A DNA stretch of 64,000 nucleotides from Epinephelus fuscoguttatus (Eukaryota; Chordata; Actinopteri; Perciformes; Serranidae): contig NC_064758.1 of assembly GCF_011397635.1 (NCBI RefSeq), forward strand, positions 18,239,513 to 18,303,512, in the 5' to 3' direction. Shown here piece by piece: positions 31,971 through 58,300 of the stretch (the stretch's first letter is position 1; each line of letters opens with the position of its first letter). The notes beneath the pieces are model-generated. The model was not told the origin of the DNA, searched no databases, and saw only the letters and a list, made by a program, of their open reading frames with translations. The position numbers and the translations under genes were made by a program.

Positions 31971-32011
31971 CCATCTGTTGCGCGGTGGTTGTGGCGCGTG
32001 CCGAACGCGTG
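31971..32011. promoter_or_regulatory. hes2 upstream block B1 with CATCTG and two CGCGTG sites
   Basis: CCATCTGTTGC, GTGGCGCGTGCC (GGCGCGTGCC at 31993-32002) and AACGCGTG (CGCGTG at 32006-32011), matching 42123-42157 in order. Fits E-box plus HES class-C sites. Confidence 0.5.
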
Positions 32012-32400
32012 AATCCCACTGTGCAAAATTCCCTGCACTGTGTTTGGTTTAATGGTCAGCAGCAGAGATTGACTGGAATACTACAAATATGTTGAAATTT
32101 GTTTAATTGTGAAACATTATTTTATATTTAATACTGTGTTTATATAGGTTTTAAGGGATTATAACTTCAAAAGAGGCCCAGTTTTACTGAATCACGCCAG
32201 CTCCTCACCGTGTCATCCATGCAGTGTTAGAGCAGACTTGCATGACTCCGTTGTATACGTATATTCCTACGTTTACACTCTGCAGATGCACGCTCCTCTC
32301 TGCGTGTGTTGCAGGTTGTCCAGTCACCCAGTCTCCACCCCCACTGCTGCAGGTAAACACCGTGTTGCTGATACTGGAAACAAGCTGCTGAGGGTCCACA

Positions 32401-32437
32401 AGCAGATGTTAATCCATACATAGCGTGGCTTGGGTAT
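32401..32437. promoter_or_regulatory. hes2 upstream block C1
   Basis: AGCAGATGTTA followed 20 bases later by TAGCGTGGCTTGGGTAT (32421-32437). Both words recur exactly at 42547-42582 with spacing of 19. It lies 742 bases before the copy A ATG. Confidence 0.55.
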
Positions 32438-33163: not shown

Positions 33164-33253
33164 ATGAGTCCCAGCATCACTACCGAGGCCAACCAGCCTC
33201 TCCCTGCCAGGTCCACCGTGGCCCAGAGAAAACAAGCCAACGAACTGAGAAAG
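33164..33253 (+). CDS. hes2: hes2 copy A coding exon 1
   Basis: 90 bp, 30 codons, ending ELRK in phase 0 at a GTAAGG donor. The N-terminal sequence differs strongly from copy B apart from MSP and the last residues. Confidence 0.93.
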
Positions 33254-33979
33254 GTAAGGGACAGAGAGAACCTGCATATCGCTTTATGTTACTGGAAATA
33301 TTTTCTCATTTGTCTCCTTTAAAAGTGCAGCTGAATAACTGGTTTTCATGTTTTTTTTCCAGACTCTTAAACCCTTGCTGGAGAAGAGAAGACGTGCTCG
33401 TATTAACGACAGTCTCGGGCATCTGAAAAGCCTGATTCTCCCTCTGGTTGGCAAAGACAACGCTCGCTACTCCAAGCTGGAGAAAGCTGATATTCTGGAA
33501 ATGACAGTCCGTTTCCTCAGAGACCTTCCCTCCACTCCAGTTAAAGGTATACATCATCTCTTGAGCTACATTGCATAAGCTATTATATCCGAGATTGTGG
33601 GTTACACATGAAATTCAAGCCACTAATCAAATCTCTTCTTTCTCCAGACTCCGCAGACAGTTACAGAGAAGGCTACAAAGCCTGCCTCCAGCGCGTCTCC
33701 GCTCTGCTCCCCAAAACCAGCCTGGATCAGGACGCGTGTCAGCGGGTGAACGAATTCGTCCAGCAGTCCATGTCCGCCACAGTCACCCCAACCTGCCTGA
33801 ACTGCTGCGCTCAGAGCTCCAGGACTCTCCCTCAGATCCATCAGAGACTCCTGAGCCTCAAATCCAGCTTCAGCTCCAGACTGGAGAGCCAGTCCCGCAG
33901 CAGCAGCAGCGCAGTTGCTCCCAGCCAAGCGCAGCCAGGCCCGCAGGCTGTCAACGCAGCCATGTGGAGACCTTGGTAG
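33164..33979 (+). CDS. hes2: hes2 copy A, bHLH-Orange-WRPW transcriptional repressor (3 coding exons)
   Basis: Exons 33164-33253, 33363-33546 and 33648-33979 join in frame to 201 residues. Residues about 28-85 form the bHLH: a HES-type basic region with the hallmark proline ([14 protein letters not shown], 33-46) and helix 2 with [17 protein letters not shown]. An Orange domain follows (about 95-133, [13 protein letters not shown]), and the protein ends in WRPW (198-201), the Groucho/TLE-binding motif. HES2 rather than other HES proteins is supported by [15 protein letters not shown] and DSYREGY, all close to human HES2. HES proteins repress E-box and N-box genes as dimers, usually downstream of Notch. 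Odd points: it lacks the intron that copy B has after the loop, and its last exon is nearly identical to copy B's. The ATG at 33164 is chosen over 33026 because the TATA box lies between them. Confidence 0.95.
33363..33546 (+). CDS. hes2: hes2 copy A coding exon 2 (fused exon)
   Basis: 184 bp, after acceptor TTTTTTTTCCAG, ending at GTATAC in phase 1. It equals exons 2 (96 bp) plus 3 (88 bp) of copy B with no base gained or lost at the join. Confidence 0.93.
33648..33979 (+). CDS. hes2: hes2 copy A last coding exon
   Basis: 332 bp with the Orange domain, a Ser/Gln-rich linker and WRPW, stop TAG at 33977-33979. By eye it has about 21 differences from copy B's 332-bp last exon. Confidence 0.94.
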
Positions 33980-34440
33980 ATTAGATGGACATTTATGTCA
34001 TGCTTGTTATTTATTTTGAGATGTTATTTATGCTATTTGTATTCCAATAACTGTTGTCGTAGCGATTAAGAATTGTTGGAGTTGTTGTACAGTGATTTTA
34101 TTAAGCATGTGGCTCATTTTGCCTTCACTGCCAGAGAGCACTAGCACAGATCTTTAAGAAACGGAAGTCTATGAGCTCTTTTAAAAATGCAATCCTCTTT
34201 GGGGTTTCAAAGATACGGGTTGTAGTCAACACTTTTGTAAAACCCCAAGGGTGATTTTGTGTGAGGTTTGCACGATGGACTTAAAAGTATTTTGGTCTGT
34301 GCAAAAAATAGTCTGTAAACACTATGTGTTAAATAGGATTATTTATTATTCACTGACGTCATGTAAGATAAATGCTTTGTGATACTGCAAATGTTTTGTT
34401 ATTGACAAAAGCTTTTCAATAAATATTCATGTCAAAAATA
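33980..34440 (+). promoter_or_regulatory. hes2 copy A 3'UTR with two AU-rich nonamers and poly(A) signal
   Basis: TTATTTATT occurs at 34007-34015 and 34339-34347, the core AU-rich element linked to rapid mRNA decay, which suits a HES transcript. AATAAA at 34418-34423 is the likely poly(A) signal. Copy B's 3'UTR has neither nonamer and is unrelated in sequence after the stop. Confidence 0.6.
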
Positions 34441-35819
34441 TGGTTGTGTTGTTTGATCTTTGATTTTGTGGTGGTCTAAAGATCTCAAATAGGCTATATC
34501 TTAAAGCCAGACGACTTCATAAGAGGACTCTCAGTTTTATGAATGGGATGGAAAAAGGCGCGCAAACGCATAAAGCCGCAGGTCAGCCTGAGCCTATTGA
34601 TGCTGATGAGCAGCTGCTCTATTGTTGCAGATGTGAGGCGCCTCTCTAGTTGCCGCCAAATTGGTGGGAAGAAGTTGGGCTGGTTGTGCGACGGGACACA
34701 CACTGAGATGACTGCAGTCATGACAGATTTAATGTCATTCCAAAAAACCGCACACTTGTTTGTCAGTAATTTTATAATATTCGATGAAGCGTTTCCTAAA
34801 CAAATATTAGTCAGCATATCCCAGTGGTTGCCAATAGCAGGCTTGTAAGTTTATTGGCAAATTTATGGTCACAATATAAGTTTTTTCTCATATCTAGTAT
34901 GGCTGTCTTGAATTTACCGCTTTAACTAAATGATATCAGGAGTTAGTACTTCTGTTTCCAAAGTGTTTATTCCTGCATGCATGATCATATAACCAGCACT
35001 TGTACACTGCTTATTGCATTTTCTTTTGAAAGACTACTTTTTAAAAAAATAATCTCAATGATGTCTGCCCCCCTCTAAACTTTACTGGATTTAAGTCATA
35101 TTCAAAAGCCTCTATAGGAGAAGGGTCACAGTTTATATACAAGCATTTAGTCCAGTAAAGAAGTTCTCTAGGCATTATGAATAAATTAATAAGACTTAAC
35201 TTTCGTGAAACACCATAAAGCAGAATGGACGCTAATAGCAACTCTTGGGCCATAAGCAGGTACCTAAAATGCATTAGCATATAGGCATTATTATTCTTTG
35301 GCCACTGTGACACCAAACAATGTTGTGACAGGAGGTAAACTTGTTTTGAAGAATAACGTAGAGTTTAATTTCTTAGCTTTTAGACAGCTATTAGTTTTAC
35401 TCACTTTAATATGGGATGGAAATCATCTTATAGAGACTTGGACCCTAATCTTTATTCATCTTTATCATTCAGCATGATATTATCCTCCTGTGGTATAATG
35501 CAACTGAGAGCAGGGACTCTTGTTGGTTGGATTTGAGTCATACTTCAACTAAAACTCATTCTTAATGCAAACTTATGTTGTTTACTAACACTAGGAATAG
35601 GTCATAAAATATACCTTCGGTGGTCACTCTTGAGGGAGATGAAAAAGAGGCTGTTAACTGTTATAAAAACTGGTTATTTTAAGTGATGACTTCCTCACTT
35701 TTAAGACACGTGCAGAACCTGGTGAAAAGCTGAGGCTAAAACTGAGATTTTATTTTCTCAAAAAGTTGTGCTCTTCTTTTAAAGTAAAAATGCATCTTGT
35801 TGCCACCACTTTTTTTTTT

Positions 35820-35863
35820 GCACATGACCTATGCTGTATTGGATTACAGCATAGGTCATGTGC
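35820..35863. repeat. Perfect 19-bp inverted repeat with 6-nt loop
   Basis: The arm GCACATGACCTATGCTGTA (35820-35838) and its exact reverse complement (35845-35863) flank TTGGAT. The stem does not extend past either base. It may be a cruciform or hairpin RNA; no known miRNA is recognised. Confidence 0.9.
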
Positions 35864-36136
35864 ATAGGCAACAGCATAGGCTTTGCATAGAGCTGATGCA
35901 CAAGTATAAATCTACCTTGATGGTGATCTGTCATATATGCACACCTCTGTTTAGTGTCTTCATATGGTTAACACAGCTTAACATGCTTCCCCAATTCATT
36001 ACCAGCTGTACAGCTCTGACTCACTACTATGAGTTATAGACCTACTCTGGGGTAGGATGGCCTGCTCTGGCCACCTGTAGGCTTCGTCATTGGTACACTT
36101 TTGTATATAAGGCAATTCTTGCTCCTATACTATCTA

Positions 36137-36530
36137 GGTTCAAGGTTCAACGGTTCAAAAGGTTTTTATTGTCAATCATTGTATGTGCAGGACATACAAA
36201 GAATTGAAATGCTGTTTCCCTCTCACCTGATATAATGTCATACAATTTAAGAGTTAAAAGAAAGCTAAATTGGAATAATGATAATACAATAAAAAATGAT
36301 ATATACAAGTAAAAATAAAGAGAAAACTAAGTAGTATTACAAAAAGACAAGACACTCTAGAAAATACTCTAAACCTATGTACAATCAAAGTGATCAAGGT
36401 GCATGTTAGAGCAGCTTATGGGATGTACGTGATGTACGTGTAGTGCAAATGACCAACAGCAGCAGATATAATATGGAGTGGTGCAAATAGTTATGGTAAA
36501 GTGAAGTAAAGTGCACAGTGTAAAAACAGA
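36137..36530. repeat. Dispersed teleost repeat
   Basis: TTCAACGGTTCAAAAGGTTT, TTTTTATTGTCAATCATTGT, AGAATTGAAATGCTGTTTCC and later GTGCAAATAGTTATGGTAAA follow the order of a common fish interspersed repeat. Diverged, non-coding. Confidence 0.6.
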
Positions 36531-38600
36531 CTGTGTCTTTATTATACAGAAAAGTGTTAGACAGTATTTTTGCCATCTCAAGACTTTATTATGCTTTCTA
36601 TTCCAAATGCCAGTACGGAAATTGGATAAAGGACTTTTAAGTATTCAACACCTTTGTCATGGAATATGTTGCAAAATGACTTTGAAACTCAAGGCAGTAA
36701 TCTCATGAAATGCTTTTAAATCCACAACGAAAGAAACAGAGGCAGATTCCTTAAGATATCAGTTTACTTATTTATTTAGTTTACCTGGTTAAGAAACTCT
36801 TCTAAACTTCTCTTGTCAGATGTGACTCTCTTTTGCTTAACTTCCTTTTTATTTTGTCTCTCTTTGTGTTATTTGTGTTTTCTATCTGTAACTTTTTATT
36901 TAGGCCTCTGCCTGTCTTTTGAAAAGACAGGAAATCTCATAAAGGTTAAATAAGTAAACAAAAAAAGTGCCACTTTCAGTGAACAAAATCAGATAGTCCT
37001 TTTATAAAATTCATGGTTTTCCGATAGTGTTGTTGTTTATGGATGGATGTTGAAGAATTGTCGAATGGACCAACAACAGTGCGGTAACAAATGCCTACTG
37101 GATTACCAACTGTATCTTAAGCTCATTTTATGTCTCTCCAGGTTGACTGTCAGACTGAACTGGAGTGTACTGATGAAACCAGTGGCTCCATGAGGTAGGA
37201 CATGTCTATGGGAACTTATTGTCTTCTGTGGGAAATGGTCAGCAATAGTGCAAATGGCATGCTACTGTACATACCCATTAAACCTCGCCAGTCACTGTTA
37301 GTATTGCGGCTGTCTGTAGAGATCGATTTTTTCAATAGAAGTGATGTGTGCAGAGCTACATCCCAGTGATCAGCTGAGGTTAATAAGAGGCAGTCTGAGT
37401 TATCTAGTAGGTATCTCCTGCAGTTAGTCTTTAACATATGAAACTCCTTTGTGGTTTCAGACAGTTTCTTTGCTGCGCTGCAGTGGAGGGTAGTAACGCA
37501 TAGAGGGAATTTTGTACACTTGATTTGTTCACACTGCTAAAGCCTCATATTGTTTTCAGCTGAACCTAAAATGCACTTTTGTGCACAAAGAGGACCTGTC
37601 CATTTCTTATGTCAAAGTCAGGTTAACAAGGGAGTTATTAAAAAATGTGGACATTACTTTTACATTTTTCCCGTGGAGGTTAAATGCACTTATTTTGTAT
37701 AACTCTGGACAAAAGTGACTGCCAATCTATTTAACAAGGAAAGAAGGGCTTAACAGAGTTTGAAAATCTCTTTTAAAGAGTGTTTTAAGCTGCAAGATAG
37801 GACATGAAACATAGAGGTATGAAGAGTATGAAGAGAATAATCATGGACCACCAAACACAAAGGATCAAAAGGTTAATGTGAGATTAATAAAGCAATAATA
37901 AAGATGTCAAAATAATAATATAGAAATAGATATGCAGGACATTAAAATTATTTAAGACAAAGATAAACAACACAGATGACACTGATGATCTCAATATAAT
38001 GTTACAAACAAATAAGTAGTTTATGAACACTGTTGGATCAGCTTGCCTCCAGTTCAAACATGATGGGTTTAAAAGCAATGTGTGATTGAAGCATGTTCTA
38101 CTCAGAGGGAGCAGCAGACATGAAGGCTCACATTAGGAACAGAAAGAAGTTCTGGAGTGTAAACAGCATTCCCAGCCCTTATTTGGAACAATAAATTTGC
38201 AAAAGTATGCAGATCAGTATGACTCTGTAAAGCCCTGCTTACCCTATCATACAAACAAGAGTGTAGGTTTTGTTCCAACACTGAAGGACAAACCTATGAA
38301 ACATGGCGTTGTGGGGTCCTCTGCCAGAAAAAAAATGAATATCAAACACTTAATTTTCTACATTGTGGTGACTTTCTATGCTCCAGTTTGTACCGTTTCT
38401 GCATCACTTCAGGGTGTACATGTCTTAAATTTTGTCAAAATAAAAATAACACTGATGGTTCAGGCAGAACTCCACAATGCAGAACTGACAAATGTTTCTT
38501 TTTCTTTGTCTCAAAATAAAGGCAGGACTTGCTTCCAAAATAAAAGCCCACTTGTGACATTTCTTTTCAGTTCAGAAAACATTGCTATAATGCACTACAG

Positions 38601-38651
38601 ATAATATAATATAATATAATATAATATAATATAATATAATATAATATAATA
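38601..38651. repeat. (ATAAT)n microsatellite
   Basis: Ten uninterrupted ATAAT units. Confidence 0.95.
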
Positions 38652-39029
38652 TACATTTTTATAGGATACGAAAGGTGTTACAATGCCTAACCATTAACTA
38701 TGAAAGACATTTTGTCTGAAGATTAACAGTCCTAAAATACAGTATAAGCTCTAAAAAACGGGATCCGAATTGTTCAGTTTTTCTTGTTGAAAAGCAAAAG
38801 CCAATTATATGAAGAGTGACAGTGTTTTTGCTCCCTCATGCTCCCTCATGCATATTCCTGTGGATATTACTGTCTTTAAGGAGCATTTTACCAGTATCCC
38901 AATAAGATTTACATTTACTGTATAGCTGTTCTCATGCACTGTTCCCAGAATCTGTATGAGGCTTTACCCAGAATTTGTATACAGCTCACATAATCGTGAG
39001 CTGGTGATGTGTGTGTAACCTACATAACT

Positions 39030-39370
39030 GGAAAGGCTGCAATCATGTGACCATGAGTGTGCTGATGAGAGTAAAAATGGAAGTAGTGTAAAGAGCAAAG
39101 CAACACGGGACTTTCCCCCCAGGAGACTGGTGTTTGTGTCCCATTTGAATCCAAGTGAACTTAGAGTTATCTTAAGCTACGTTGCCACCATGTTTCTTTT
39201 CCTGAACCCCAACCTACGTAACTTTACTTGCCCAAAATTAATCTATGTAACTTCACCTTAAATATTTAACCTTACGTTAAGTAGGCTACGAAATGTGACA
39301 GCACACCATGTTTCTATTCCTAAACGTAACTTTACATTAAGTACGCAATGTTCCATTAAGTAATGTAATG
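39030..39370. repeat. Dispersed repeat, second copy of the 10045-10300 family
   Basis: It shares GGAAGTAGTGTAAAGAG, GACTGGTGTTTGTGTC, CCAAGTGAACTT and TTTACTTGCCC in order with 10045-10300. Its AACCTACGTAACTTTACTTG phrase is typical of this fish repeat. Confidence 0.7.
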
Positions 39371-39662
39371 AATGCCATTCGTGGAGCAATGATTAGTTAG
39401 ATATTGAAACACTGTATGACGATATGTTTGTATATTTGACAGATCTGCATCTCATTTATGTCCAGTACCAACGTTCAGTGTCAATGCAGCAGGCAGTGTG
39501 CCCTTTACAAAGCATCTGAGGGTGTAGGGTTCCAGTTGAGGTTATGGTGGGGGTTGGGTGCATCTGAATTTTGTGCAGGAGACAAGAGTTTGCATCCTGT
39601 CACAGACCTGCTAATCACAATCTCTACCCTTAACCATGCTGTATTTACCACAGATAGTAGTT

Positions 39663-39717
39663 AGTGCCAACATTGTCTCTCTACAGTATCATACTGTACA
39701 GCGACAATGTTGGCACT
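39663..39717. repeat. Near-perfect 27-bp inverted repeat
   Basis: Arms 39663-39689 and 39691-39717 around a single C pair with two mismatches; the outer 15 bases (AGTGCCAACATTGTC) pair perfectly. A DNA foldback or hairpin RNA is possible; no known miRNA family recognised. Confidence 0.85.
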
Positions 39718-40924
39718 GAGAAAAATGTATTTGTTTTCTGGGATTTTGCATTATTTGTTCAGTACTGGAGCACTTGTCAGGGTTGATTTTGCACAGTATT
39801 TTTAAAGAAGCAGGCATGTAAGAGACATGAAGGGTTTAATAAATGCTGCTATTGAGCTGCATTACGGAATTTGTAGGATCCAGTGATTTGGAGCTGGCTC
39901 CACACTACAGACACTGGACATTTTGCTGCTTCCATTTTGATCGTTCTTTTTATGCGTCTCTCTTAGTCTCCCAATGTTTTATAAAAGTGCACTGCTAAAT
40001 CGTCGGAGTCGTCCTTTAATTAGTAGAGATTTGCTATTGAATGAGTATTTGCCTGTTTTGGCATCACATTATATTGTTTGATTCAGATCAGTGGTAACAG
40101 GCTTCAGGTGGAATAACACCAAGTCCAACTGGTGTAGAAAGAGACAAGGAGCAGCTTAAGTTATAGTGTACTGGAGAACAATCTACTCTAATTTGAACTG
40201 ATAAAAACTTCAAAAGTTAAAATATGGAAAAAAAATCAATTTGCAAACACGCAGTATGTCCTTTTACTCCATTTACAAAACTGGATGAGTGAGTGAAGCC
40301 CAAACACATGGAAGCTGCAAGACAAACCAGTTTGCTTCTCTTAAAAAGAAACCATTCTGACCCAGTATTGGATTGAAGGCTTTAATGGATGCTATTGTAT
40401 ACTGTACTTATTTCTTTCCAGTTTTCTGGTAAAATTCAATTTTACTTTCATTTGAACAGACCAAAGTATAGTCCCACAAAAGGACTAAAACAACCGAATT
40501 CTGTATTTTTAGAGCAGAACAAAAAATATAATGAAGAGTGTGCACAAACCTGTCAGTCAAATAAAGGGAATACCACTGCAGAGGTTATACACCTGAAAAA
40601 AGTGGTCGTGAAAACTGGGATATTTTCTTTATTTGACCTGTTTCACAGCAGAAGAGCAGGGCATTATTTAACACATTCTTTTTCATTTTTGACATGTTGG
40701 TGGTCACATGTGGAGTTTGTTTATGGATATTATAGCTGGATATGGTGTGTAAGACTCAGAAAAAACCCAAAACAAACATATAATCAAAAACGAATCCTCC
40801 CGTTTCCTCTCAGCTCACATCACGCTGAAGCAAAAGTCAGGTGGAGTCCCGTGTCTCTGTTTCTCTCCCCACCCTTAGCCCCACATGCGAGTCTTATTCA
40901 CATGAAGTGTCGGAACATTGTCAG

Positions 40925-41010
40925 ACAAAGGCTCCCTGTTATCCTGCCTGCACAGATGGGTTACCGACGCCGATTTTGTTAGAAAAGACAAAAGAGGACT
41001 CTAACCGTAG
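40925..41010. promoter_or_regulatory. hes2 upstream block A2
   Basis: ACAAAGGCTCCCTGTTATCC, GCACAGATGGGTTACCGACG and GGACTCTAACCG match 31240-31315 in order. It also overlaps the end of a long chance open frame. Confidence 0.5.
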
Positions 41011-41089
41011 GAGCAAAACGTAGGAAAAGTGTACCTCCTCCCAACCCCCATCACCTCCATCATCCCTCTATCCCAGCGGGGCGGTGAGG

Positions 41090-41099
41090 GGCGCGTGCA
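41090..41099. promoter_or_regulatory. GGCGCGTGCA motif
   Basis: Class-C HES-type candidate site just downstream of block A2. Copy A has a weaker counterpart, CGCGTG at 31409-31414, at the corresponding place after block A1. Confidence 0.35.
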
Positions 41100-41950
41100 G
41101 CAAGTGTGCCTCTCTGTTTCAGGGCAGCGCTTGGCTTTGTTGAAGCAGCGCTGCATGATCATGTCTGCACGATGCTGACCTTCACATTTAGACTCTGTAG
41201 ACTTTATTTATTGTCATTTCAAATTGTGGACATAGTTGGAAGTTATGCTCAATCACCCAAACACCTTATAAATGATAGCAAACATTAAAATCATATTGCG
41301 CCATTAAGATGGATAAATCTAGTGCACGAGTGCGGTTTGGAAACCAATTTAAAGTTGACGTAATGCAAACACATTATGCTCTCTTTATGATTGAATCCAT
41401 ATATTGTATAAAGATGAATAATGGATTAGTGTAGTCATTTGCCTTTGCGTTACTGCTTTAATATACTCTTCAATATTGGATTTGTAATTCTGTAATTCTG
41501 CTTGTGTTTTGCGAAGTTCTTACAATATCAGAAAAAAGATAATGCTTTTTTTAAGATTCTCAGTGTGTGTTTTCCTATGTGAACTGTTTGATGTTTACCG
41601 TAATAATTTAAAAAGAACCGTGTCCACTGGATCATGCAATCTGCTCTTTCAGACCAGCATCTCCATCTCCACCAACAGCTTGAGCTTTGTGTTTCGTCAT
41701 CATCATATGATATTGATAAACAGGCATTTCATGATAGCTTGGACGCCAAAATATCCATGAGTCCAGCCGAAGGAGACAATTGCAACAGAGTTTCCAAACA
41801 GGGGGGGCGAGAATGGTTTGTTTCAGTTGGACGACAACATGGACCTGTAAGGGGCATGCAGATGGGGCACCCACGCCAAAACTGCGTGGAGATCATGTGT
41901 CGTGCGTGTAAAGTCTATAGAAAGAGCTTGAGTATATGCAATGCAATATA

Positions 41951-41951
41951 T

Positions 41952-41982
<31 letters not shown>

Positions 41983-42000
41983 GGGGGTGGGCGCGCGCGC
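41951..42000. repeat. (TG)n + G22 + (GC)5 tract
   Basis: TG repeats (41951-41965), then 22 uninterrupted G (41966-41987), then TGG and alternating GC. Both quadruplex-prone and Z-DNA-prone on paper. Confidence 0.95.
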
Positions 42001-42122
42001 ATGGATAAGATGTGGATAGATCCACGGTGGGACTGGGAGGCTGGCTGTTGAGGATGCTGGTGTGGTGCAGGAGGAGTGTATGGGGGGGTGGGGTCGATGG
42101 ATGGAGGCTCGGTAACAGACCG

Positions 42123-42157
42123 CCATCTGGTCCCCGTGGCGCGTGCTGCGCGCGTGG
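42123..42157. promoter_or_regulatory. hes2 upstream block B2
   Basis: CCATCTGG, CGTGGCGCGTGCTG (GGCGCGTGCT at 42138-42147) and GCGCGTGG (CGCGTG at 42151-42156), the same order as B1. Confidence 0.5.
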
Positions 42158-42546
42158 TTCCCCTGAGTGCAGTGGTATTTGATGGGTTGTCATGTCTCTC
42201 CAGTTTTTATTTAAAATCTGAAAAATCTCAAAGCTGTAATTCAAAGTTGGATTCATAGCTCACATGGCACATGGTTGGTTATGGAATACAACAAGACCAC
42301 AAATAAATAGCTTAAGTATTAATAACACATAAAAAGTTAAATCTGACATCAGGCTCATTTTATATTTCGCGGTGGCTATTATGATTGAAGTACATGCTCC
42401 CTCGCTACCCACCCTTTGTTTTTCAGCCCCCGCCGCGTTGCGTGAGGCGTTGGCAGCAGCGGGATACACCCTTCAGGTAGAGACACCCCCCGGGCAGAAA
42501 CTGCATAAAAACATCATATGCAAAACTATTGTTGTCAAAATCTAAG

Positions 42547-42582
42547 AGCAGATGTTATTTGAAAGTAGCGTGGCTTGGGTAT
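42547..42582. promoter_or_regulatory. hes2 upstream block C2
   Basis: AGCAGATGTTA then TAGCGTGGCTTGGGTAT (42566-42582), identical words to C1. It lies 898 bases before the copy B ATG. Confidence 0.55.
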
Positions 42583-43377
42583 GAGATTGGAGTAAGAGTC
42601 TGTATCTCTGTGGACACTTGTTCATACGCTCAAGCCTGACCCCTACGCCAGCAGTGTGTGTATTGCACCCTATTGTTCAAAGTGTGTATTTTTATTTTAA
42701 AACACATAGCGTAAAGTATATGTAATCAAACTTGGGCAAATTACGCAGTAAAATACAATAAAACCCCAACGTGGAACAGCATCATGAAATTCAGCAGGCA
42801 AACATATTTTAACAATATAAAGTTATTACAAGCTCATAAATAAATTGTTGGTGTTGAGAAGATATTATTCTTTAAAATGAATTTTATTTCCTTGTTAGAT
42901 CTCAAAATAAACGAACCCTATATAACTTATAATACAGCCTATATATTAAGTACCCAGCTCCAAAGCACTGCGTAATTACGCACCACTAATTATATATTTT
43001 TGTGTATTTTAGAAACACCTTTTCCATCCACTATATATGAAATAAGAAACCTACTTATGTTATATTTAATTTGATATAAGTTGGGTTCAAAGAGTTTGCA
43101 GAATTGATATTTGGTGAATGAGCATTCGGTGCGTCCAAAGCTTCTTTACGCACACATTTCTCCAGCTTGTTACCGCAGGTTTTGTTTTATTTGGTCGCTG
43201 GATCACAACGCAGACACGCGCTATAGTTGTTACGCATGGATTAGAATAGAAGACAGATGGTTATCTCACTAAATTTGATGGTTTTGTGTTGTTTCCATTG
43301 AGTTCATACTCCAAATCGTTTCGTGTTGGCTTGGGGGCGTAGCCGTGACGCACGTTAACCGACGCCAGGGAGCTGCA

Positions 43378-43383
43378 TATATA
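43378..43383 (+). promoter_or_regulatory. TATA box of hes2 copy B
   Basis: CATATATACC with TATATA 86 bases before the ATG. A start near 43410 gives a 5'UTR of about 55 bases. Confidence 0.65.
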
Positions 43384-43463
43384 CCGCAGCCCTTGGCCGT
43401 TTGAGACACATCTTCACTGACTTTCGTTCTGGACACTTCTCTGGCACAAAGACGAAGCTGAAA

Positions 43464-43553
43464 ATGTCTCCAAACATGACTTGTGAAGCTCTGCAGTCTT
43501 TTTCTCCAAAGCTAACTGTGGCCAAAAGAAAAGAGGCTCTTGAGCTCAGAAAG
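43464..43553 (+). CDS. hes2: hes2 copy B coding exon 1
   Basis: 90 bp, 30 codons from [11 protein letters not shown] to LELRK, phase 0, GTAAGC donor. Confidence 0.93.
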
Positions 43554-44386
43554 GTAAGCGAAGTCAAGGAATTTTGCTTTATTATCTTAAACATTTTCTC
43601 TGATGTTTTGCACGTAATGTAATGAATGAATTCTAAACATGATGTTTTTTTTTCAGACAATGAAACCTTTGATGGAAAAAAGGAGGCGCGCCCGTATCAA
43701 CGACAGCCTGAACCATCTGAAAAACCTCATCCTCCCCCTCACAGGCAGAGATGTAAGTTCTCATATCCATTTCAATGCATGCATAATACGTTTCTGAAAC
43801 ACCTCAGTCATGGCAACATTTAGGCTCATATGTTTAACATTTGCTTTTTGATTATTTTTCAGAAGACTCGCTACTCCAAGCTTGAAAAAGCCGACATCCT
43901 GGAAATGACTGTGAGGTTCCTCAGCGACATTCCTCCTGTTAACACCAAAAGTGAGTGGTTCTGCTTGTATAACGTGTTTGTTGAGAGATACAGAAATAGT
44001 GGACTCTTCTCGACACTTTTGAACAGAGGAACTAACAAGTCATTGTCTTTTCAGATTCCGCAAACAGCTACAAGGAGGGCTACAAAGCCTGCCTCCAGCG
44101 CGTCTCAACTCTGCTCCCCAAAACGAGCTTGGATCAAGACGCCTGTCAGCGGGTGAACGAATTCGTCCAGCAGTCCATGTCCTCCACCGTCACACCAACC
44201 TGCCTGAACTGCTGCGCTCAGAGCTCCAGGACTCTCCCTCAGATCCAGCAGAAACTCCTGAGCCTCAAATCCAGCTTCAGCTCCAGACTGGAGAGCCTGT
44301 CCCGCAGCAGCAGCGGCGCAGTTGCTCCCAGACGAGCGCAGCCAGGCCCGCAGGCTGTCAACGCAGCCATGTGGAGACCTTGGTAG
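43464..44386 (+). CDS. hes2: hes2 copy B, bHLH-Orange-WRPW transcriptional repressor (4 coding exons)
   Basis: Exons 43464-43553, 43657-43752, 43863-43950 and 44055-44386 join to 201 residues, exactly the length of copy A. It has the same layout: a basic region with the HES proline ([15 protein letters not shown]), helix 2 with [17 protein letters not shown], an Orange domain ([13 protein letters not shown]) and C-terminal WRPW. The four-exon structure, with an intron between the loop and the YSKLEKAD segment, is the usual vertebrate HES structure, so this copy keeps the ancestral form. Tandem and same-strand with copy A, about 9.5 kb downstream, and only about 0.9 kb before acot7. The ATG has A at -3. 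Likely a nuclear DNA-binding repressor recruiting Groucho/TLE. Zebrafish also has two hes2 genes; which one each copy matches cannot be decided here. Confidence 0.95.
43657..43752 (+). CDS. hes2: hes2 copy B coding exon 2
   Basis: 96 bp, 32 codons from [11 protein letters not shown] to LPLTGRD, acceptor TTTTTCAG, donor GTAAGT, phase 0. Basic region, helix 1 and loop. Confidence 0.94.
43863..43950 (+). CDS. hes2: hes2 copy B coding exon 3
   Basis: 88 bp, from [11 protein letters not shown] to PVNTK, acceptor TTTTTCAG, donor GTGAGT, phase 1. Helix 2. Confidence 0.94.
44055..44386 (+). CDS. hes2: hes2 copy B last coding exon
   Basis: 332 bp, acceptor CTTTTCAG, Orange domain to WRPW, stop TAG at 44384-44386. 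Confidence 0.95.
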
Positions 44387-44850
44387 ATTTCTTCAGTTTT
44401 CAGTTTCTTCCAAAAGCCTGTGAAAACTGTGAAGTGTTTCATATGTAGGCAGCATGTTGAGATAGCATCACTTGTAAATATACACAGTGATTGATGAAAG
44501 CCAGAATTCATCGTTAAATCGTATTGGTTGAGTATTATATACTTACGCTCTGCGCACGAGTCTGTTGTCCTGTTTAAGTTGACAAGTTTAGACGGTCGTA
44601 TTTTCTTAAATCTGCATGTATGTATACGGTAAATATTTAGTCCTCTCCGCGGACTAAGTGATGAAGGGCCATTGAAACAGCCCTGTAAGACCCAAAGGGT
44701 CAGTGTGTATGAATTTGCACCATAGACCTCAGTGTCCTGAGTCTGTGCAGATGAACTCTGTAGACATGTTATGTGTCATTGTAAGTATCTCTGTGGGGAT
44801 GTTTTATTTTTGCTATTCACAGCAAATGTTGTATATATGTTATATAAACA

Positions 44851-49329: not shown

Positions 49330-52300
49330 AAACTTCAAAACCGTTTTGTATAAGTAGGAACATCTGCACACCATTTCTTGCGTCGACTATCTGTTTAGTC
49401 TAGATATTTAATTTAAATATACAGTGCTGGGTACTTTTAACAATCTAGATAAGACGTCATAATTTGATGGTGGATTGCTTTAGGATGTCAGTATATTACA
49501 GGTTCATATCAACATTGTAAAGGGCTTTTGTGCTGGACTGTGTTTGAGAGAAGTGATCTATATTATATTTCTAAAACCTGTGGTCGATTCAGGTGGAATG
49601 TTTTAACAGAGGGGTCTTGTGACACTTACAACTGCTTTGGTTGTGATCTTTGTCTGACTGTAAAAACACAATCATTGTGGAGAACAAAATTCTTTGGGTG
49701 GGGGATCAGCTCATCAAAAGCAAAAATCTCAGATCAGGGTTTCTCAAAGTTTTGATGGCTGAGTGCCATTTTAAGGAGCCAGCATACGATTGAGGACCAT
49801 TGACACACACTGACTTTTTTTTTTTTTTTATCATATATGATTTTTATGCCATTTTCATGACACACTGTCAACACCTACAGTGATTTAGCCCACAGCACAC
49901 TTTACATTGTGTACACATTACATTCTAGTTTTTCACTTTTTAAATACTTTTGAAAGTAATGAAATACAGAGACCGTATAATTTGTGACATTGATTGTACC
50001 CACAGTGGTTAAGCAGAGCCTTTTGCTGCAGTACAGCAACACGACTGCACAAATCACACACAGACCTGCAGTAAACCACAATACTAGAACTGGTAGTATA
50101 ATAATAAGTGCACATTGTTCTGTTAATTTATGAAGACATCTCTGTTGCTGGTTATTTTGGGCTTTTGTTTGATTTTAGATAAACAAAGCCTTTCAGAATA
50201 TGAAACTTTTATCGCCAAATTCAGACAATCAATACAGTTTTGAAGCTTATAAAGGCAAGATGACAAGCTGCAATCACTTGTCAGCTGCACTCAGGTCCTA
50301 CCCAGTGCCACTCCCATCCCTCCCTCTATGTCTACCTGAAATTATGAATGAAAGGCTTTACGTTATAGTAACTAGGCAGGATCCAGGACAGTTTTGTCTG
50401 ATTTCAAATATAAAAGTGTTGGCTTTCAGAATATTAAACCATCTGAGCTAGCCTAGCTTTAAGTGGCTTAGCATCGTGCATCAAAATAATGATGTGCAAC
50501 GTTAAACTTTTGTCAGTATGGACATGCTACACACCATTAGCTTGGTCAGATCCTCTACAGGTCAGTCAATCAGTTCAAATTATGAAAACCATGAGCAGCA
50601 AAGTGTAAGTAATTTTATACTGGCATGGTTAACAAGAGAAACAAAAAAGTGTTAACTCCTCCTTAAGTTCGGGTAAGTGTCCCTTCCTCAGTTATTTATG
50701 TTCCTTTAGTCTGTAAAGGCTCTCCAATCAAAAGAATAAAAAGGAGTTTTCATGAAAAATTGATCCAAGTTGTGAATATTGTCATATGAAGTCCACTGCT
50801 TACTGTATATGCTAACTTCTGCCTTCAAACGGACTGCAGTGAAATATTCTCTTCCTGCAACGTGTTGTAGGGTTTGCTTGTTTTCATTACCCCCGTGGCT
50901 ACAAAATAAAAATATCCCTGTATCTTTTAGTTTATTTTCTCTCCCCAAGGCAGCCACCAGAGTACAGCATTCTCTCCCAGTTTAGAAGAATGGGCTCTGT
51001 CATGTACAACCCCTGGCAAAAATGATGGAATCACCAGTCTTGGAGGATGTTCATTCAGTTGTTAAATTTTGTAGAAAAAAAGCAGATCACAGACATGACA
51101 CAAAACTAAAGTCATTTCAAATGGCAACTTTCTGGCTTTAAGAAACACTAAAAGAAATCAAGAAAAAAATTGTGGTAGTCAGTAACAGTTACTTTCTTAG
51201 ACCAAGCAGAGGGAAAAATTATGGAATCACTCAATCCTGAGGAAAACATTATGGAATCACCCTGTGAATTTTCTTTCCCAAAACTAACACCTGCATCAGA
51301 TTAGATCTGCTCGTTAGTCTGCAGTTAAAAAGGAGTGATCACACCTTGGAGAGCTGTTGCACCAAGTGGATTGACATGAATCATGGCTCCAACACGAGAG
51401 ATGTCAATTGAAACAAAGGAGAGGATTATCAAACTCCTTAAAGAGGGTAAATCATCACGCAATGTTGCAAAAGATGTTGGTTGTTCACAGTCAGCTGTGT
51501 CTAAAATCTGGACCAAGTACAAACAACATGGGAAGGTTGTTAAAGGCAAGCATACTGGTAGACCAAGGAAGACATCAAAGCGTCAAGACAGAAAATTTAA
51601 AGCAATATGTCTTGAAAACAGAAAATGCACAGCAAAACAAATGAGGAACAAATGGGAGGAAACTGGAGTCAATGTCTGTGACTGAACTGTAAGAAATCGC
51701 CTAAAGGAAATGGGATTTACATACAGAAAAGCGAAACGAAAGCCATCATTAACACCTAAACAGAAAAAAACAAGGTTACAATGGGATAAGGAAAAGCAAC
51801 CGTGGACTGCGGATGACTGGATGAAAGTCATATTCAGTGATGAATCACGAATCTGCATTGGGCAAGGTGATGATGCTGGAACTTTTGTTTGGTGCCGTTC
51901 CAATGAGATTTATGAAGATGACTGCCTGAAGAAAACATGCAAATTTCCACAGTCATTGATGATATGGGGCTGCATGTCAGGTAAAGGCACTGGGGAGATG
52001 GCTGTCATTACATCTTCGATAAATGCACAAGTTTACGCTGACATTTTGGACACTTTTCTTATCCCATCAATTGAAAGGATGTTTGGGGATGATGAAATCA
52101 TTTTTCAAGATGATAATGCATCTTGCCATAGAGCAAAAACTGTGAAAACATTCCTTGAAGAAAGACACATAAGGTCAATGTCATGGCCTGCAAATAGTCC
52201 GGATCTCAATCCAATTGAAAATCTGTGGTGGAAGTTGAAGAAAATGGTCCATGACAAGGCTCCAACCTGCAAAGCTGATCTGGCAACAGCAATCAGAGAA

Positions 52301-55300
52301 AGTTGGAGCCAGATTGATGAAGAGTACTGTTTGTCACTCATTAAGTCCATGCCTCAGAGACTGCAAGCTGTTATAAAAGCCAGAGGTGGTGCAACAAAGT
52401 ACTAGTGGTGTGTTGAAGTGTTCTTTTGTTTGTTTGTTTTTCATGATTCCATAATTTTTTCCTTGGAATTGAGTGATTCCATAATTTTTCCCTCTGCTTG
52501 GTCTAAAAAAGTAACCGTTACTGACTACCACAATTTTTTTTCTTGATTTCTTTTAGTGTTTCTTAAAGCCAGAAAGTTGCCATTTGAAATGACTTTAGTT
52601 TTGTGTCATGGCTGTGATCTGCTTTTTTTCTACAAAATTAAACAACTGAATGAACATCCTCCAAGACTGGTGATTCCATCATATTTGCCAGGGGTTGTAT
52701 CTTCACCGCGAGCAGTGCAAACTTTGAAGGCTGTTTTCTCAAAATCATTGCTCAGTGACATTAATTATGTAATGTGACATATTTTGCTTAATATTTAGAG
52801 AACAAAAACAATACTGTTATTATTAGAAAGCGAAGAATCTCCTCCATTTAACAGTGTAAAAAATCTAAGTAAATGTTTTTATGAATGAAGCAATAACGCA
52901 CACAATTTCAGAAAGAAAATGTACATCCTAACCACATAGAAACATTTTTTAAACTCTTAAGTTGGAATCACACATGTCTCTGGGCCTCTTGGCAGATGTG
53001 TCACTGAGACATTCCTTACTCTGCCAGTCTGTCAGCTGTGACACACAAACCTAGGTGTAATGACAACAGGTTGTATTGGTCAACTGCCATCTGTCTGTGA
53101 ATCAGTGGGTGTGTTGAGATCCAGTTTGACTACTCGAGACACCTTAGGCGGAGTCAACCTAACGCCTCATGACATCACTCACCACAACAATGCCAGGGCC
53201 CAAAATCTCAGGAGATGTGCATGTAGAGATCATTCACAAGGGAAGTGGACCAGAGAGCAAGACTGAGAATCAATCAGAGTGCAGAGATGCGTTGCTTTAG
53301 GCCTCCGAGCAGCAAAGCTGAGAAGGCAGTGGTGGTGGAGAAACGCCAAGTCAGTCAAAGTCAGCAAGTCAGCAGAGATGTCATGAGAGATGGGGAGGCA
53401 GGAGCTCCGCAGGGCGCTAAATATCAACTCAGCAGGTAGTTCGTCTCGGACGCGCTCACACATACACACACAATGATGCTGAATTTACAGGATGCTCTGT
53501 CTGATACACTCTTTCTCTTCTCACACACACACAAAACAGTGATACAGTGATATTTATCTTGTACATTGATGTTGTGTTATTTATTGAGGTTTCTGTTGTG
53601 TTGTGCTGATCTGGGCAGAATGAGTTTCCCATGGGGACAGTAAAGGACACCTAATCTTATATTATCTCATACAAAATTTGCTGTTTGAAAAAAAATAACA
53701 ATATTTTAAAAAGTACTAAATGAAAATACTTTTACTTTGTTAAACTTTTTGATTATTGTTCAGACTGTGTCAGACAGGTGCTGATTGATAATTAATTGAT
53801 AGGCTGGTCAGTTTTGAGACTGTAGCTTTTGCTGCTGTTGATTGGACTGAAATATATTCTCAACAGTTTAGCATTTTTGCTTTATATGTATATTAAAGTT
53901 GATTAAAATAAAGGTAAATCAGCACCTCTCTATCTTTCTTCATTCACAACAGTAGTGTTTATCAAAGTGCTGTATAGTAGAGTTATTTATATATTGCCTG
54001 GTTATTATGTGTAACATGACAAGTACATTATTTTAGTTTTGTGTTTTTATTTCCCCTTTAAATGTTGTTTTCAATTCAGTTTAGTTTCAGTTAGTTTCCA
54101 TCGTTGGTTTGCTTGTTTGAGTGAAGTTTTTATTAGTTTCAGTATTAGTATTAGTCATTTTTTATAACAATTTGTCAGGGGCATTGATTTAAGAAGTTCA
54201 GAAGAGGTATGACAACACAAATACAGCGCTTTGTAAAGACAGTTGACTCAAAGTCATAGAGACATTGTCTCAGTGAAGTGCCACCTCACACTCAATGTGT
54301 TGACAGGTTTGATCAAATTGACAGAGACTGAAATGGAAGATATTTGCCATATATTTGAATTTTATTTTAGTTCAGTACATTTTTTTTCAAAGTCTAGATT
54401 TTATTTTAAGTCTAGGTTTTTTCACACCTAGTTTTAAGGGGTTTTTATGGGGGAGTTTTTCCTTATCCGCTGCGAGGGTCCTAAGGACAGACGGATGTCG
54501 TATGCTGTAAAGCCCTCTGAGGCAAATTGTGATTTGTGATATTGGGCTTTATAAAATAAAAGTGAATTGAATTGAAATTGTTTACTCTAGTTTTAGTCAA
54601 ATATAACAACTGTGGCCACGTGTAGTGCTTCTGCTTTGTCTGTGGCAACACGATACTGCTCCTTGGTGTTGCAACAGTAAAATTCCCCACCTGTTCACAT
54701 GTAACTCTGACTCAGACTATTTTTAGAGGAAGTCTACGTCACACTGCCATTCATATAAATAAATATATAAACAAATAAACAATCATTTCTAACTGGCATC
54801 AGTAGTAATCCTCAGATGGTTGACTGTTGTCGTAACCATGAACCAAACATTAAACATGACTCATGCACGATCAGCCTCCCTGTGCAGTGCGATCGCTAAT
54901 GCTATCAAGATGTGGATCTTTGTATTGCACAATGTACACATTCCTGTGAAAGCGTTACCGTCTGATTTCCATGTAAAATTGTAGTGCAGCCGTTCATACC
55001 TTGCGTCTGTGGCGGAGTCTGTTGGAGTATGTAAGCAGATTGGATTGTAACAGGTAAAACTAGTTTAACCCACACATGGAGGAATTGGAAACAGCTGATG
55101 TGCATGGCAACATCCTGTACTGCCAGTGAAAATGATGCTGTATGTCATCATCAGATAGACACAGAGAGGTCAAAAACATCTACAAAACAACTAAGTCCTT
55201 GCAACTCATCAGTAACTATCTGGAAGGACATCTCAACAGATGTGTTCTTAGATAGTTCTGCTATTGCCAAGAAACATGTCAGATTCTTTATGACTTTTTT

Positions 55301-58300
55301 TGTTACAGATAGGGTCAACAAACAAGTCACTTTAACTGAAAACACAGGAACATTTTGTTAACCTTTGATAATGCCGATCAGAGCATCCTCTGCCCCACAC
55401 AGCCAGAACTATCTCAAGTTGTTGGCTCAGCTCTGTACTGTTAAAACTTTAATTACTGTTAAAGCACCAGATGTTGGAGTAGGAAGACACTACCTTTTTT
55501 TCTCCTGAGATCATTGCTCAGCGATGTTTCGACCTACTGCGGCTTTCCACTGAAAAGCCTCTCTGCGGCTGGCCTGCTGACTGTCCCAAGAGTTACAACA
55601 AAACATGGTGAAGCAGCATTTGGTTATCATGCAGCACAAACTTGGAATAACCTCCCAGATGATGTAAGATGAGCCCCATCTGGGACCCCTTTAGGTCAAA
55701 GCTAAAAGCGCCCTTTTTTAACACTGCCTACTCCACCCTGTAATGACCGCAAACTCAATTTTAAAACATTTTAAATAATCTTTTTTATCTTTCCTACTCT
55801 TGTCTGGACTTAACTATTTTTAATGTTTTTTTTTTTTTAAATTGTAAATAATTTATTAATTAATTTTAGCTTTTATATCTTTTCCCTTTTCTCTTTTATT
55901 CTAAGTCTGTATCCTTTATTAAGTTTTATATTTTTATGCTCTGTAAAGCGCTTTGAATTGCCCTGGTGTATGACATGTGCTGTACAAATAAAGCTGCCTT
56001 GCCTTGTCAGGTTTTCACATTTATTGATCCATAGTATTTTTTCCCAACAAGATCCCAAGAACTCTTAAAACAAGATGCTACAGTGATAACACATACACCA
56101 GATCCAGAGTCATGCTAACTAATCTTCTCTTCACTGCAGGATCATGCGGCCAGATGATGCCAACATTGTGGGAAACGTCCACGGCGGCATCATCCTCAAG
56201 ATGATCGAGGAAGCTGGATGCATTGTTGGCACGCGGCACTGCAACACACAGAATGGGGTAAGAGACAACATCTACATTCAGACTATACGCTAAACTAGTT
56301 TATTGTACTGCTGGTAAATTAAGGTGGCAGGACTTCTCTCCTTAAGTTGTTTAGTTAAAGGAAAATGCACCTGCAAAATGACCATTTGTATATCGATTAC
56401 TTACTGCGTGTTACGTTGACGTGGTGAGGAAAAAATTTTCTGTTACATGCCTCTACGGTTAACGAAGAAAGAACGCTCCTAAAAAAGCGGACATTCATTA
56501 TGAAGTGAAGTAATCAGGGTCCAAGTTTCATTTATCCAGTAATGCTCAGTACTTCCCAAACACATGCATTTACACAGGTCAGTACAATCAGTCTCCTGCA
56601 AGCACACACAGGTGCGTTCTAGGCATGCTCCTGTTAGGTAGAAGTGTTTTATAATTTAACATTTTAGAGTAAATGCACATATTTGGGAAGTATGAAATCA
56701 GACTTGGACCATGATTACTTAATGAAAAATGTTTGCCTTTTTTGGATTCTTCATTAACAGTGGAGGCATGCGAGCAAAAAAGATTTTCCTTAGCACTTAA
56801 CACACGGTAAGTAATTGACAATCAGATGGTCATTTTGTGGAGTAGTCCATTTTTACCCACAAAATGGGTGAATTGCACAGTCCTACAATTGTCAAATACC
56901 CAATGTTCCCTCTCAAACCCTAAGAAATAGACAAAAATATAATGTGCACAGGAGTCAACAAATGTGAAGTGTTCAGTAAAGAAAAACATTATTACCATTT
57001 GTTACGTTTACCGCTTCTTTTATTAATGTGGAAAATATGAAAAAAAAAATGGGGGAAATGAGGCAAATGAAGTACCTTAAAAGAGAAAAAATGTTTCTTT
57101 GGTAGAGTTATTGGTTTATTCAATTAGAGACGGTAATCTGCAAAATACAAAAAACTACAACAAAGTTCCACACAGTTCACCTTGTTTGTTAATCGTCTAT
57201 AACAGATTTAAATCTACTATTTTCAAACCGCATGGCTGCATTAATAATTTTTTCAGCATTTTCTCACCCAGATTTGTTTTCCTCCTTACCGCCTTGGTTT
57301 TACTTTTCACCTGGTGAACCTTAACCGACTTTTGTCTTTCATCATTCAATTGTCATCTCAACTACTACAACAATGTGCACATACATGTTTTGCTGTTCAG
57401 ATCAAATATCAGGACACACACATTTTTGGACAAAGCAGCCAATGACACACTGAACTATTGTGATGAAGAGTGAAAAATACTTACATTTAGCATATTCTTG
57501 AAATCCTCTAAAACATTAAAGTCAAATTAGATTCAGAAATGACTTTTAGCTTTTATACTCATTCCTTTGTTCTGTTACTGTATATATTACTCACCATTTA
57601 TACTGTAAATACAAAAGTACCTCCAGTGTTTTATATGTAATTCTATTTGTGTGCTTTATATGTTGTGGTTATGTTATGGTATATGAAAATATAGGCTTGC
57701 AGTTGGTGGTGCCATCACAATCAGTTAATCTATCAAATTTTATTTGTACAGTATAGCACCTTTCATACATACAGGGTTAGTACAATTCAGATGACTGAGA
57801 AGCTGCAAATAAAGCAGTACAGATGTAAAAATCACAAATTTTATGACCACCTCCCCTCACACTACTAATTTCATATAGGATGTTAAGAATTTGGGATTTT
57901 ATCCCGGTGTCTGCCACTCCACTTAAAGACGCCCTGTATAAAGCAGGAAGATACAGACTTTCAGAAGAAATAGCTCATCATAATCAGTTTTATCTTCTGT
58001 TTTACTCAAAGAATATTGTCTGTCATGTTAACATTTATAGGGACACATTTGATTTTTTTTTAAGTGGGGTTGTATGAGGCACTTATCTATCATCAGGGTA
58101 TTACCTACAGTAGACAGCACACCCACACCCTAAAAAGAAGCCTATCTAAGACAAATCAGTATCTGCCTAGTTTATTTCTGATGGGGAACTGGAGCCGTCA
58201 TATCATTCACTTCAAAGCCTCCAGGCTCCTTTGACAAGAACAGTGGTTTTACCTCGCAGAACATGAGAGCTGCTTGTCTACCGCGGCCTCGACCATGTTG

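What the first reader, a model, noticed from the sequence alone, without database searches (positions are those of the whole stretch)
33648..44386. Gene conversion confined to the last exon of the tandem hes2 pair
By eye the two 332-bp last exons (33648-33979, 44055-44386) differ at about 21 sites (about 94% identical), 6 of them in the first 22 bases. The bHLH exons differ at about 27 of 96 and 26 of 88 sites (about 70-72%), mostly synonymous. Introns and 3'UTR are not alignable, and similarity stops within a few bases of the TAG. Purifying selection cannot explain matching third positions over long runs in only one exon. A recent conversion tract from about 33670 to 33985 is the simplest reading; it homogenises the Orange and WRPW parts while the DNA-binding parts drift apart.
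Basis: seen in the sequence. Interest (0 to 1): 0.75.

Follow-up and report, generated by a model that had tools for sequence, protein, structure and literature searches.

The report
Gene conversion in hes2 last exon
Two old, neighbouring copies of a developmental regulator gene, probably of a fish, seem to have had the tail end of one copied over the other recently while their DNA-binding parts kept drifting apart; this is a clear case of a known process.

Summary
Two hes2-like genes lie in tandem between ankyrin (espin-like) and thioesterase (acot7-like) exons in an unnamed 1.05-Gb assembly, by gene order a fish. Exons 1-4 differ at 34/90, 27/96, 25/88 and 21/332 sites. Silent divergence is near saturation in exons 1-3 (dS 1.75, 95% 1.09-4.19) and low in exon 4 (dS 0.17); a shared dS is rejected (p 5e-10). 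Nine control paralogue pairs from the same genome show no such drop. Constraint on the protein does not explain it: in the last 192 nt none of 54 comparable silent codons differs, while all six differences change amino acids.

Refinement: the tract is graded. Exon-4 nt 141 to 3 bases past TAG is silent-identical (dS <0.051); nt 27-140, with most of the Orange domain, is intermediate (dS 0.41). Where the intermediate part starts is not resolved. The recent event thus covers the linker and WRPW tail; Orange was probably homogenised earlier.

Best explanation: ectopic gene conversion, probably at least twice, confined to the longest block of homology left between ancient tandem copies. Direction is unknown. 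The decisive multi-species trees could not be run, because no other fish genome was available. New instance of a known kind.

The parts
33164..33253 (+). hes2-A exon 1 (90 nt, 30 codons)
   Evidence: ATG and donor GTAAGG; 34 of 90 sites differ from B
33363..33546 (+). hes2-A fused exon 2/3 (96+88 nt), bHLH; intron 2 absent between 33458 and 33459
   Evidence: splice sites; Pfam HLH 44.5 bits for protein A; 27/96 and 25/88 differences
33648..33979 (+). hes2-A last exon: Orange (sub-threshold), linker, WRPW, TAG
   Evidence: 21 of 332 differences; Pfam Hairy_orange 20.2 bits, below the 25.3 cut-off
33650..33673 (+). first 8 whole codons of the last exon in A (exon-4 nt 3-26); too short to place inside or outside the tract
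33674..33787 (+). intermediate layer of the tract in A (exon-4 nt 27-140), probably an older conversion
   Evidence: dS 0.41 (0.16-0.83); differs from exons 1-3 (p 0.003) and from the rest of exon 4 (p 9e-5) (labelled 'E4 25-140'). A whole-CDS two-change-point fit starts this layer at CDS 241, in exon 3
33788..33982 (+). recent conversion tract in A (exon-4 nt 141-332 plus 3 nt of 3'UTR)
   Evidence: 0 of 54 silent codons differ; six differences, all replacements; dS <0.051; end of identity
43464..43553 (+). hes2-B exon 1
43657..43752 (+). hes2-B exon 2 (bHLH, first part)
   Evidence: splice sites; Pfam HLH 46.1 bits for protein B
43863..43950 (+). hes2-B exon 3 (bHLH, second part); intron 2 present at 43753-43862
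44055..44386 (+). hes2-B last exon
   Evidence: one of only two DNA matches in the assembly
44081..44194 (+). intermediate layer of the tract in B (exon-4 nt 27-140)
44195..44389 (+). recent conversion tract in B

Best explanation
hes2-A and hes2-B are an ancient tandem duplicate pair (direct orientation, last exons 10.4 kb apart) whose last exons were homogenised by ectopic (interlocus) gene conversion. Inferred mechanism: a break in or near one last exon is repaired from the other copy. The 332-nt last exon is by far the longest homologous block: introns and 3'UTRs no longer align, and the other exons give blocks of 88-96 nt with identical runs of at most 16 nt. The tract therefore cannot spread past the exon. 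At least two events are likely: an older one whose trace is the intermediate part (nt 27-140, start unresolved) and a recent one covering nt 141 to just past TAG. Shown: the silent-site contrast, its layering, its 3' limit and its absence in nine control pairs. Inferred: conversion as the process, the number of events, the homology-length limit. Unknown: direction, and whether selection favoured the result.
For: dS of exons 1-3 versus exon 4 is 1.78 versus 0.17, shared dS rejected at p 5e-10. The longest run of identical silent codons (54) is reached by 0 of 20,000 permutations; best-segment scores with mismatch penalty 3 or 5 by 0 of 5000, for silent codons, third positions and all sites. Silent differences are 33 of 62 codons in exons 1-3 and 9 of 95 in exon 4 (stop excluded). 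In nine control pairs where both parts aligned, the last-exon to bHLH ratio of silent differences was 0.6-1.6; hes2 by the same measure gives 0.20. The six differences in the last 192 nt are all replacements, not what protein constraint leaves. Introns and 3'UTR do not align. Only two strong matches to the last exon in the assembly. Longest identical runs: 53, 52, 44, 39 nt in exon 4, at most 16 in exons 1-3. Age of the pair: high dS here, and a zebrafish HES2 pair on chr8 with one intron loss (PMC3396596, sections 8 and 10 read).
Against: No second fish could be fetched, so the species-versus-copy trees that would prove concerted evolution are missing. The control pairs are other bHLH-Orange genes, share loci with each other and are mostly unlinked. 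Silent constraint special to the hes2 last exon is not formally excluded for the intermediate part. The layering rests on 9 silent differences, and the whole-CDS two-change-point fit starts the intermediate layer in exon 3 (CDS 241, 10 of 46 silent codons), not at exon 4. Best-segment scores with penalty 1 are weaker (p 0.0032 and 0.002) and for all sites uninformative (p 1.0, the segment is the whole CDS).
Confidence: 0.88

Rival explanations
1. Strong constraint on the last exon (protein, RNA signal or a second reading frame) kept it alike since the duplication.
For: The exon is GC-rich (GC3 0.75 in both copies), and one other plus-strand frame is open through it in both copies. The intermediate part has low omega, 0.06.
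Against: In the last 192 nt silent sites are identical while six replacements are present; long constraint on the protein gives the opposite. The open second frame shows no silent bias (2 silent, 3 replacement codons in the last 192 nt). GC3 of 0.62-0.80 is also seen in the last exons of 12 control genes, where silent sites diverge about as in their bHLH exons. An unknown RNA signal was not tested.
Confidence: 0.05
2. A recent partial duplication or exon replacement: the 3' part of one copy was replaced by a non-homologous insertion of the other's last exon.
For: Would also give one near-identical exon beside diverged ones; incomplete duplication is discussed as an alternative to conversion in the Caenorhabditis review PMC3966223 (passages seen).
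Against: Identity ends 3 nt after TAG and no intron 3 or 3'UTR sequence was carried along; no third strong match to the last exon was found. The gradient inside the exon would need a second step.
Confidence: 0.04
3. Conversion through a reverse-transcribed hes2 mRNA rather than DNA-DNA repair; the exact intron-2 loss of copy A would be a trace of the same route.
For: Copy A lacks intron 2 exactly, the tract is 3'-biased and holds no intron sequence.
Against: The fused bHLH exon of A is far diverged from B, so the loss is not part of the recent tract. A zebrafish HES2 also has an intron loss (which intron is not stated in the section read), so the loss may be old. Intron 3 of A is present. A tract inside a single exon does not need a cDNA.
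Confidence: 0.03

Closest known systems
LWS opsin tandem pair of medaka (PMC6389941; abstract and passages seen)
   Same: Tandem duplicates in fish; the 3' part (from within exon 2 on) is more alike between paralogues than the 5' part; at least two conversions proposed.
   Different: There the tract includes introns and several exons, and comparison of two species shows it directly. In hes2 only one exon is clearly involved and introns no longer align.
lws paralogues of anabantoid fishes (PMC11291592; passages seen)
   Same: Silent distance between paralogues falls to zero over parts of the coding region; read as conversion.
   Different: Shown with several species and breakpoint analysis; not a transcription factor.
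hes5-type pair at C7:18012795/18015735 of this assembly (L021; type named by recall)
   Same: Neighbouring Hes genes with very low silent distance (3 of 140 silent codons).
   Different: bHLH and tail are alike together in one open frame and the pair is inverted, so a recent duplication fits there; hes2 has one exon alike and the others far diverged.

Membership tests
Hes (hairy/E(spl)) bHLH-Orange repressors | bHLH domain | tested here: met
   Pfam HLH 44.5 and 46.1 bits, cut-off 20.7; HES-1 structure 2mh3 matched by copy B, E 6.3e-18 (copy A not searched)
Hes (hairy/E(spl)) bHLH-Orange repressors | Orange domain | tested here: inconclusive
   Hairy_orange 20.2 and 23.7 bits, below the curated 25.3; 22.8 bits each in the genome search
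Hes (hairy/E(spl)) bHLH-Orange repressors | C-terminal WRPW | tested here: met
   both proteins end WRPW then stop
hes2 subgroup | four exons with phases 0-0-1, as stated for human HES2 (and HES1/4, 3, 6, 7) in PMC3396596 | tested here: met
   B: 90, 96, 88 nt before the last exon, phases 0-0-1; A the same with intron 2 missing. Shared with other Hes genes, so not specific to hes2
hes2 subgroup | neighbours espn and acot7 (medaka chr7 near hes2.2, PMC8320183, passages seen) | tested here: met
   ankyrin-repeat frames on the minus strand at 2.5-3.3 and 18.1-18.5 kb; 4HBT thioesterase matches at 56132-56292 and 60307-60480; naming them espin and acot7 rests on the domains plus recall
hes2 subgroup | groups with hes2 of other vertebrates in a tree | not testable with these tools
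Ectopic gene conversion | silent distance drops sharply over a bounded segment of otherwise diverged paralogues | tested here: met
Ectopic gene conversion | the segment groups by species, the rest by copy | not testable with these tools
   one genome-contig scan (last exon) and one viral-contig scan (bHLH exon) found no relative; the window's assembly has no relatives held

The most novel reading that the evidence does not exclude
Recurrent, homology-limited conversion has for a long time kept the repressor tail of this tandem transcription-factor pair evolving as one unit in teleosts, while the two DNA-binding parts evolve apart. The exon map alone would then set which module of the protein is concerted and which can specialise.
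Probability: 0.3. Interest if true: 0.5.

Novelty: new member of a known kind. Interest (0 to 1): 0.3.

Why it matters
Gene trees made from the whole hes2 coding sequence of this species would mix two histories: the last exon would suggest a young duplication and the bHLH exons an old one. It also offers a simple test of how exon length decides which part of a duplicated protein stays homogenised. As an instance of exon-limited conversion it is ordinary in kind.

Tried and rejected
Relatives: one scan of genome contigs with the last exon and one of viral contigs with the bHLH exon found none. The window's assembly could be searched but has no relatives held and gives no file, so the multi-species tree and per-species dS were not possible. 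Direction of conversion: no close outgroup in the assembly (third-best hit E 0.03), and base composition does not separate donor from recipient, so it is left open. GC-biased conversion as a reason for the high GC3 of exon 4 was considered; last-exon GC3 of the 12 control genes is 0.62-0.80, so no claim is made. Positive selection in the last 192 nt: omega is not significantly above 1 (p 0.097), and with a silent fraction of 0.235 six replacements out of six have probability about 0.2 by hand, so no claim. Dual coding: rejected. Biopython YN00 failed for exons 1, 2 and 3 taken singly, and NG86 gave no dS for exon 2, so a codon model was fitted by my own script (with kappa fixed at 2.2).

Control pairs: of 20 stretches fetched, 16 were used and four (L025, L026, L038, L039) were not. 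Sixteen pairs besides hes2-A/hes2-B were compared, one of them with hes2-B itself. Nine gave in-frame bHLH and last-exon stretches separately; silent differences, bHLH then last exon: L020p/L036 18/28 and 15/38; L020q/L036 28/52 and 41/87; L020p/L020q 18/31 and 11/27; L027/L028 14/81 and 51/186; L029/L033 29/58 and 71/134; L027/L029 25/55 and 46/93; L030/L031 44/69 and 47/87; L030/L032 43/78 and 68/155; L035/L037 17/32 and 20/29. hes2 by the same measure: 27/51 and 10/96. Not in that count: three pairs aligned as one stretch (3/140, 6/141, 34/81) and four with no last-exon alignment. Rows in other reading frames and N-terminal rows were left out by hand; some kept rows run a few codons into introns. 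Counting the N-terminal basic-region rows would change three ratios to about 2.1 (L027/L028), 1.0 (L029/L033) and 1.05 (L027/L029). The pairs share loci and are not independent; by recall they are Hes, Hey and Dec types.

Literature (8 searches). Aimed at conversion in hes2/her: hes2.1 with hes2.2, 0 papers; hes2 with gene conversion, 2 papers, unrelated by title and abstract, not read; hes2 with concerted evolution, 1 paper, same; hes2.2, 5 papers hold it, 4 listed; her4/hairy/zebrafish/gene conversion, 83 papers hold three terms, 12 listed, none of the 12 with 'gene conversion'. None listed is on conversion in hes2. The library holds open-licence papers only. PMC3087554 (passages) was seen and not used further.
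Full report
What is there. The window is G000:C7:18239513-18303512 of an unnamed assembly of 1.047 Gb in 26 contigs; that it is a fish is inferred from the gene order. Two hes2-like genes stand in direct orientation. hes2-A has exons 33164-33253, 33363-33546 and 33648-33979; hes2-B has 43464-43553, 43657-43752, 43863-43950 and 44055-44386. Both proteins are 201 aa with a bHLH domain, a sub-threshold Orange match and a WRPW end. Copy A lacks intron 2 exactly. Ankyrin frames lie on the minus strand to the left and thioesterase matches to the right. This agrees with espn, acot7 and hes2.2 reported together on medaka chromosome 7 (PMC8320183, passages seen). Human HES2 is reported with four exons of phase 0-0-1, and zebrafish with two HES2 genes on chr8; one zebrafish HES2 protein shows an intron loss and another an intron gain (PMC3396596, sections 8 and 10 read). 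The pair is thus probably old, though orthology with the zebrafish pair was not tested.

The observation. Differences are 34/90, 27/96, 25/88 and 21/332 for exons 1-4. BLASTN aligns 33645-33982 with 44052-44389 at 93.8%; besides the other exons and one upstream element nothing reaches E below 0.1. Among codons with the same amino acid and a silent choice, 33 of 62 differ in exons 1-3 and 9 of 95 in exon 4 (stop codon excluded by hand). A codon model gives dS 1.78 and 0.17, and one shared dS is rejected with 2dlnL 38.5, p 5e-10. The longest run of identical silent codons, 54 codons at CDS 415-600, was reached by 0 of 20,000 permutations. Best-segment scores with penalties 3 and 5 were reached by 0 of 5000; with penalty 1 the p-values are 0.0032 (silent codons), 0.002 (third positions) and 1.0 (all sites, where the segment is the whole CDS).

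The tract has layers. A change point inside exon 4 falls at nt 141: 9 of 41 silent codons differ before it and 0 of 54 after it; 7 of 3000 permutations do as well. Nt 27-140 differ from exons 1-3 (p 0.003) and from nt 141-end (p 9e-5). The change point was chosen on the same data, so the last p-value is too small; the permutation figure takes the choice into account. Nt 3-26 cannot be told apart from exons 1-3 (p 0.57) or from nt 27-140 (p 0.26). Over the whole CDS, a two-change-point fit gives 32/57, 10/46 and 0/54 silent codons with breaks at CDS 241 (in exon 3) and 415. So the recent break at nt 141 is firm and the start of the intermediate layer is not. The Orange domain (residues 96-127) lies at about 33659-33754, in the less homogenised part. 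The recent layer is the linker and WRPW tail.

Why not selection. In the last 192 nt, the six differences (exon-4 nt 194, 199, 244, 261, 278, 280) are all replacements, at codon positions 3, 2, 2, 1, 3, 2 (by hand). Constraint on the protein would leave silent differences first, as it did in exons 1-3 (omega 0.13). The one other frame that is open in both copies shows no silent bias. As a control, 20 stretches were fetched from the same assembly, 16 of them used, and 16 further pairs compared; in the nine with both parts aligned, the last exon had 0.6-1.6 times the silent differences of the bHLH exons, against 0.20 in hes2 by the same measure (counts and dropped rows in Tried and rejected). 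One of the nine pairs is itself a neighbouring pair (L020, two genes in 10 kb).

How it most likely works. Ectopic gene conversion between direct repeats 10.4 kb apart. Identical runs in exon 4 are now up to 53 nt, and at most 16 nt in exons 1-3. Efficient homologous repair needs long matching stretches (established knowledge; the review PMC3966223, passages seen, names identity and length of homology as major determinants of conversion frequency, and says that diverged introns may impede it). The 332-nt last exon is the longest homologous block, so it alone stayed within reach, and the tract ends where homology ends. This homology-limit step is an inference. Two events, or one older event followed by partial repetition, explain the layering; one event with a ragged edge is not excluded.

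What is known. Fish opsins give close parallels: medaka LWS, with at least two conversions over the 3' part, and anabantoid lws, with silent distance falling to zero over parts of the gene. Five searches aimed at hes2 or her conversion listed no paper on it (one search listed 12 of 83), in an open-licence library only.

Limits.

The start of the intermediate layer is now given as unresolved, after looking again; coordinates of the layers, the control ratio (0.20 by the same measure) and the literature counts were made exact.

Noticed in passing
31991-32017 and 32401-32437 (A); 42136-42162 and 42547-42582 (B): Two short noncoding elements upstream of both hes2 copies (E 0.019 and 5e-5) keep their spacing (410 and 411 nt); the first holds two CGCGTG cores in each copy, a Hes class C site by recall, so autoregulation is possible.
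   Followed up: partly
33458/33459 versus 43753-43862: Exact absence of intron 2 in hes2-A; a zebrafish HES2 is also reported with an intron loss, so it may be an old marker of the A lineage.
   Followed up: partly
L021 (G000:C7:18010000-18019000): Near-identical inverted pair of hes5-type genes (type by recall) about 0.26 Mb away, 3 of 140 silent codons different.
   Followed up: partly
51380-52402: Tc1/mariner-like transposase: 51686-52402 matches Pfam DDE_3 and HTH_Tnp_Tc3_2; the open frame just upstream (51380-51682) looks like its start and was not scanned.
   Followed up: no
33841-33927 and 44248-44334: The six differences inside the recent tract are all replacements (H/Q, R/K, Q/L, S/G, SQ/RR); omega above 1 is not significant (p 0.097).
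   Followed up: partly
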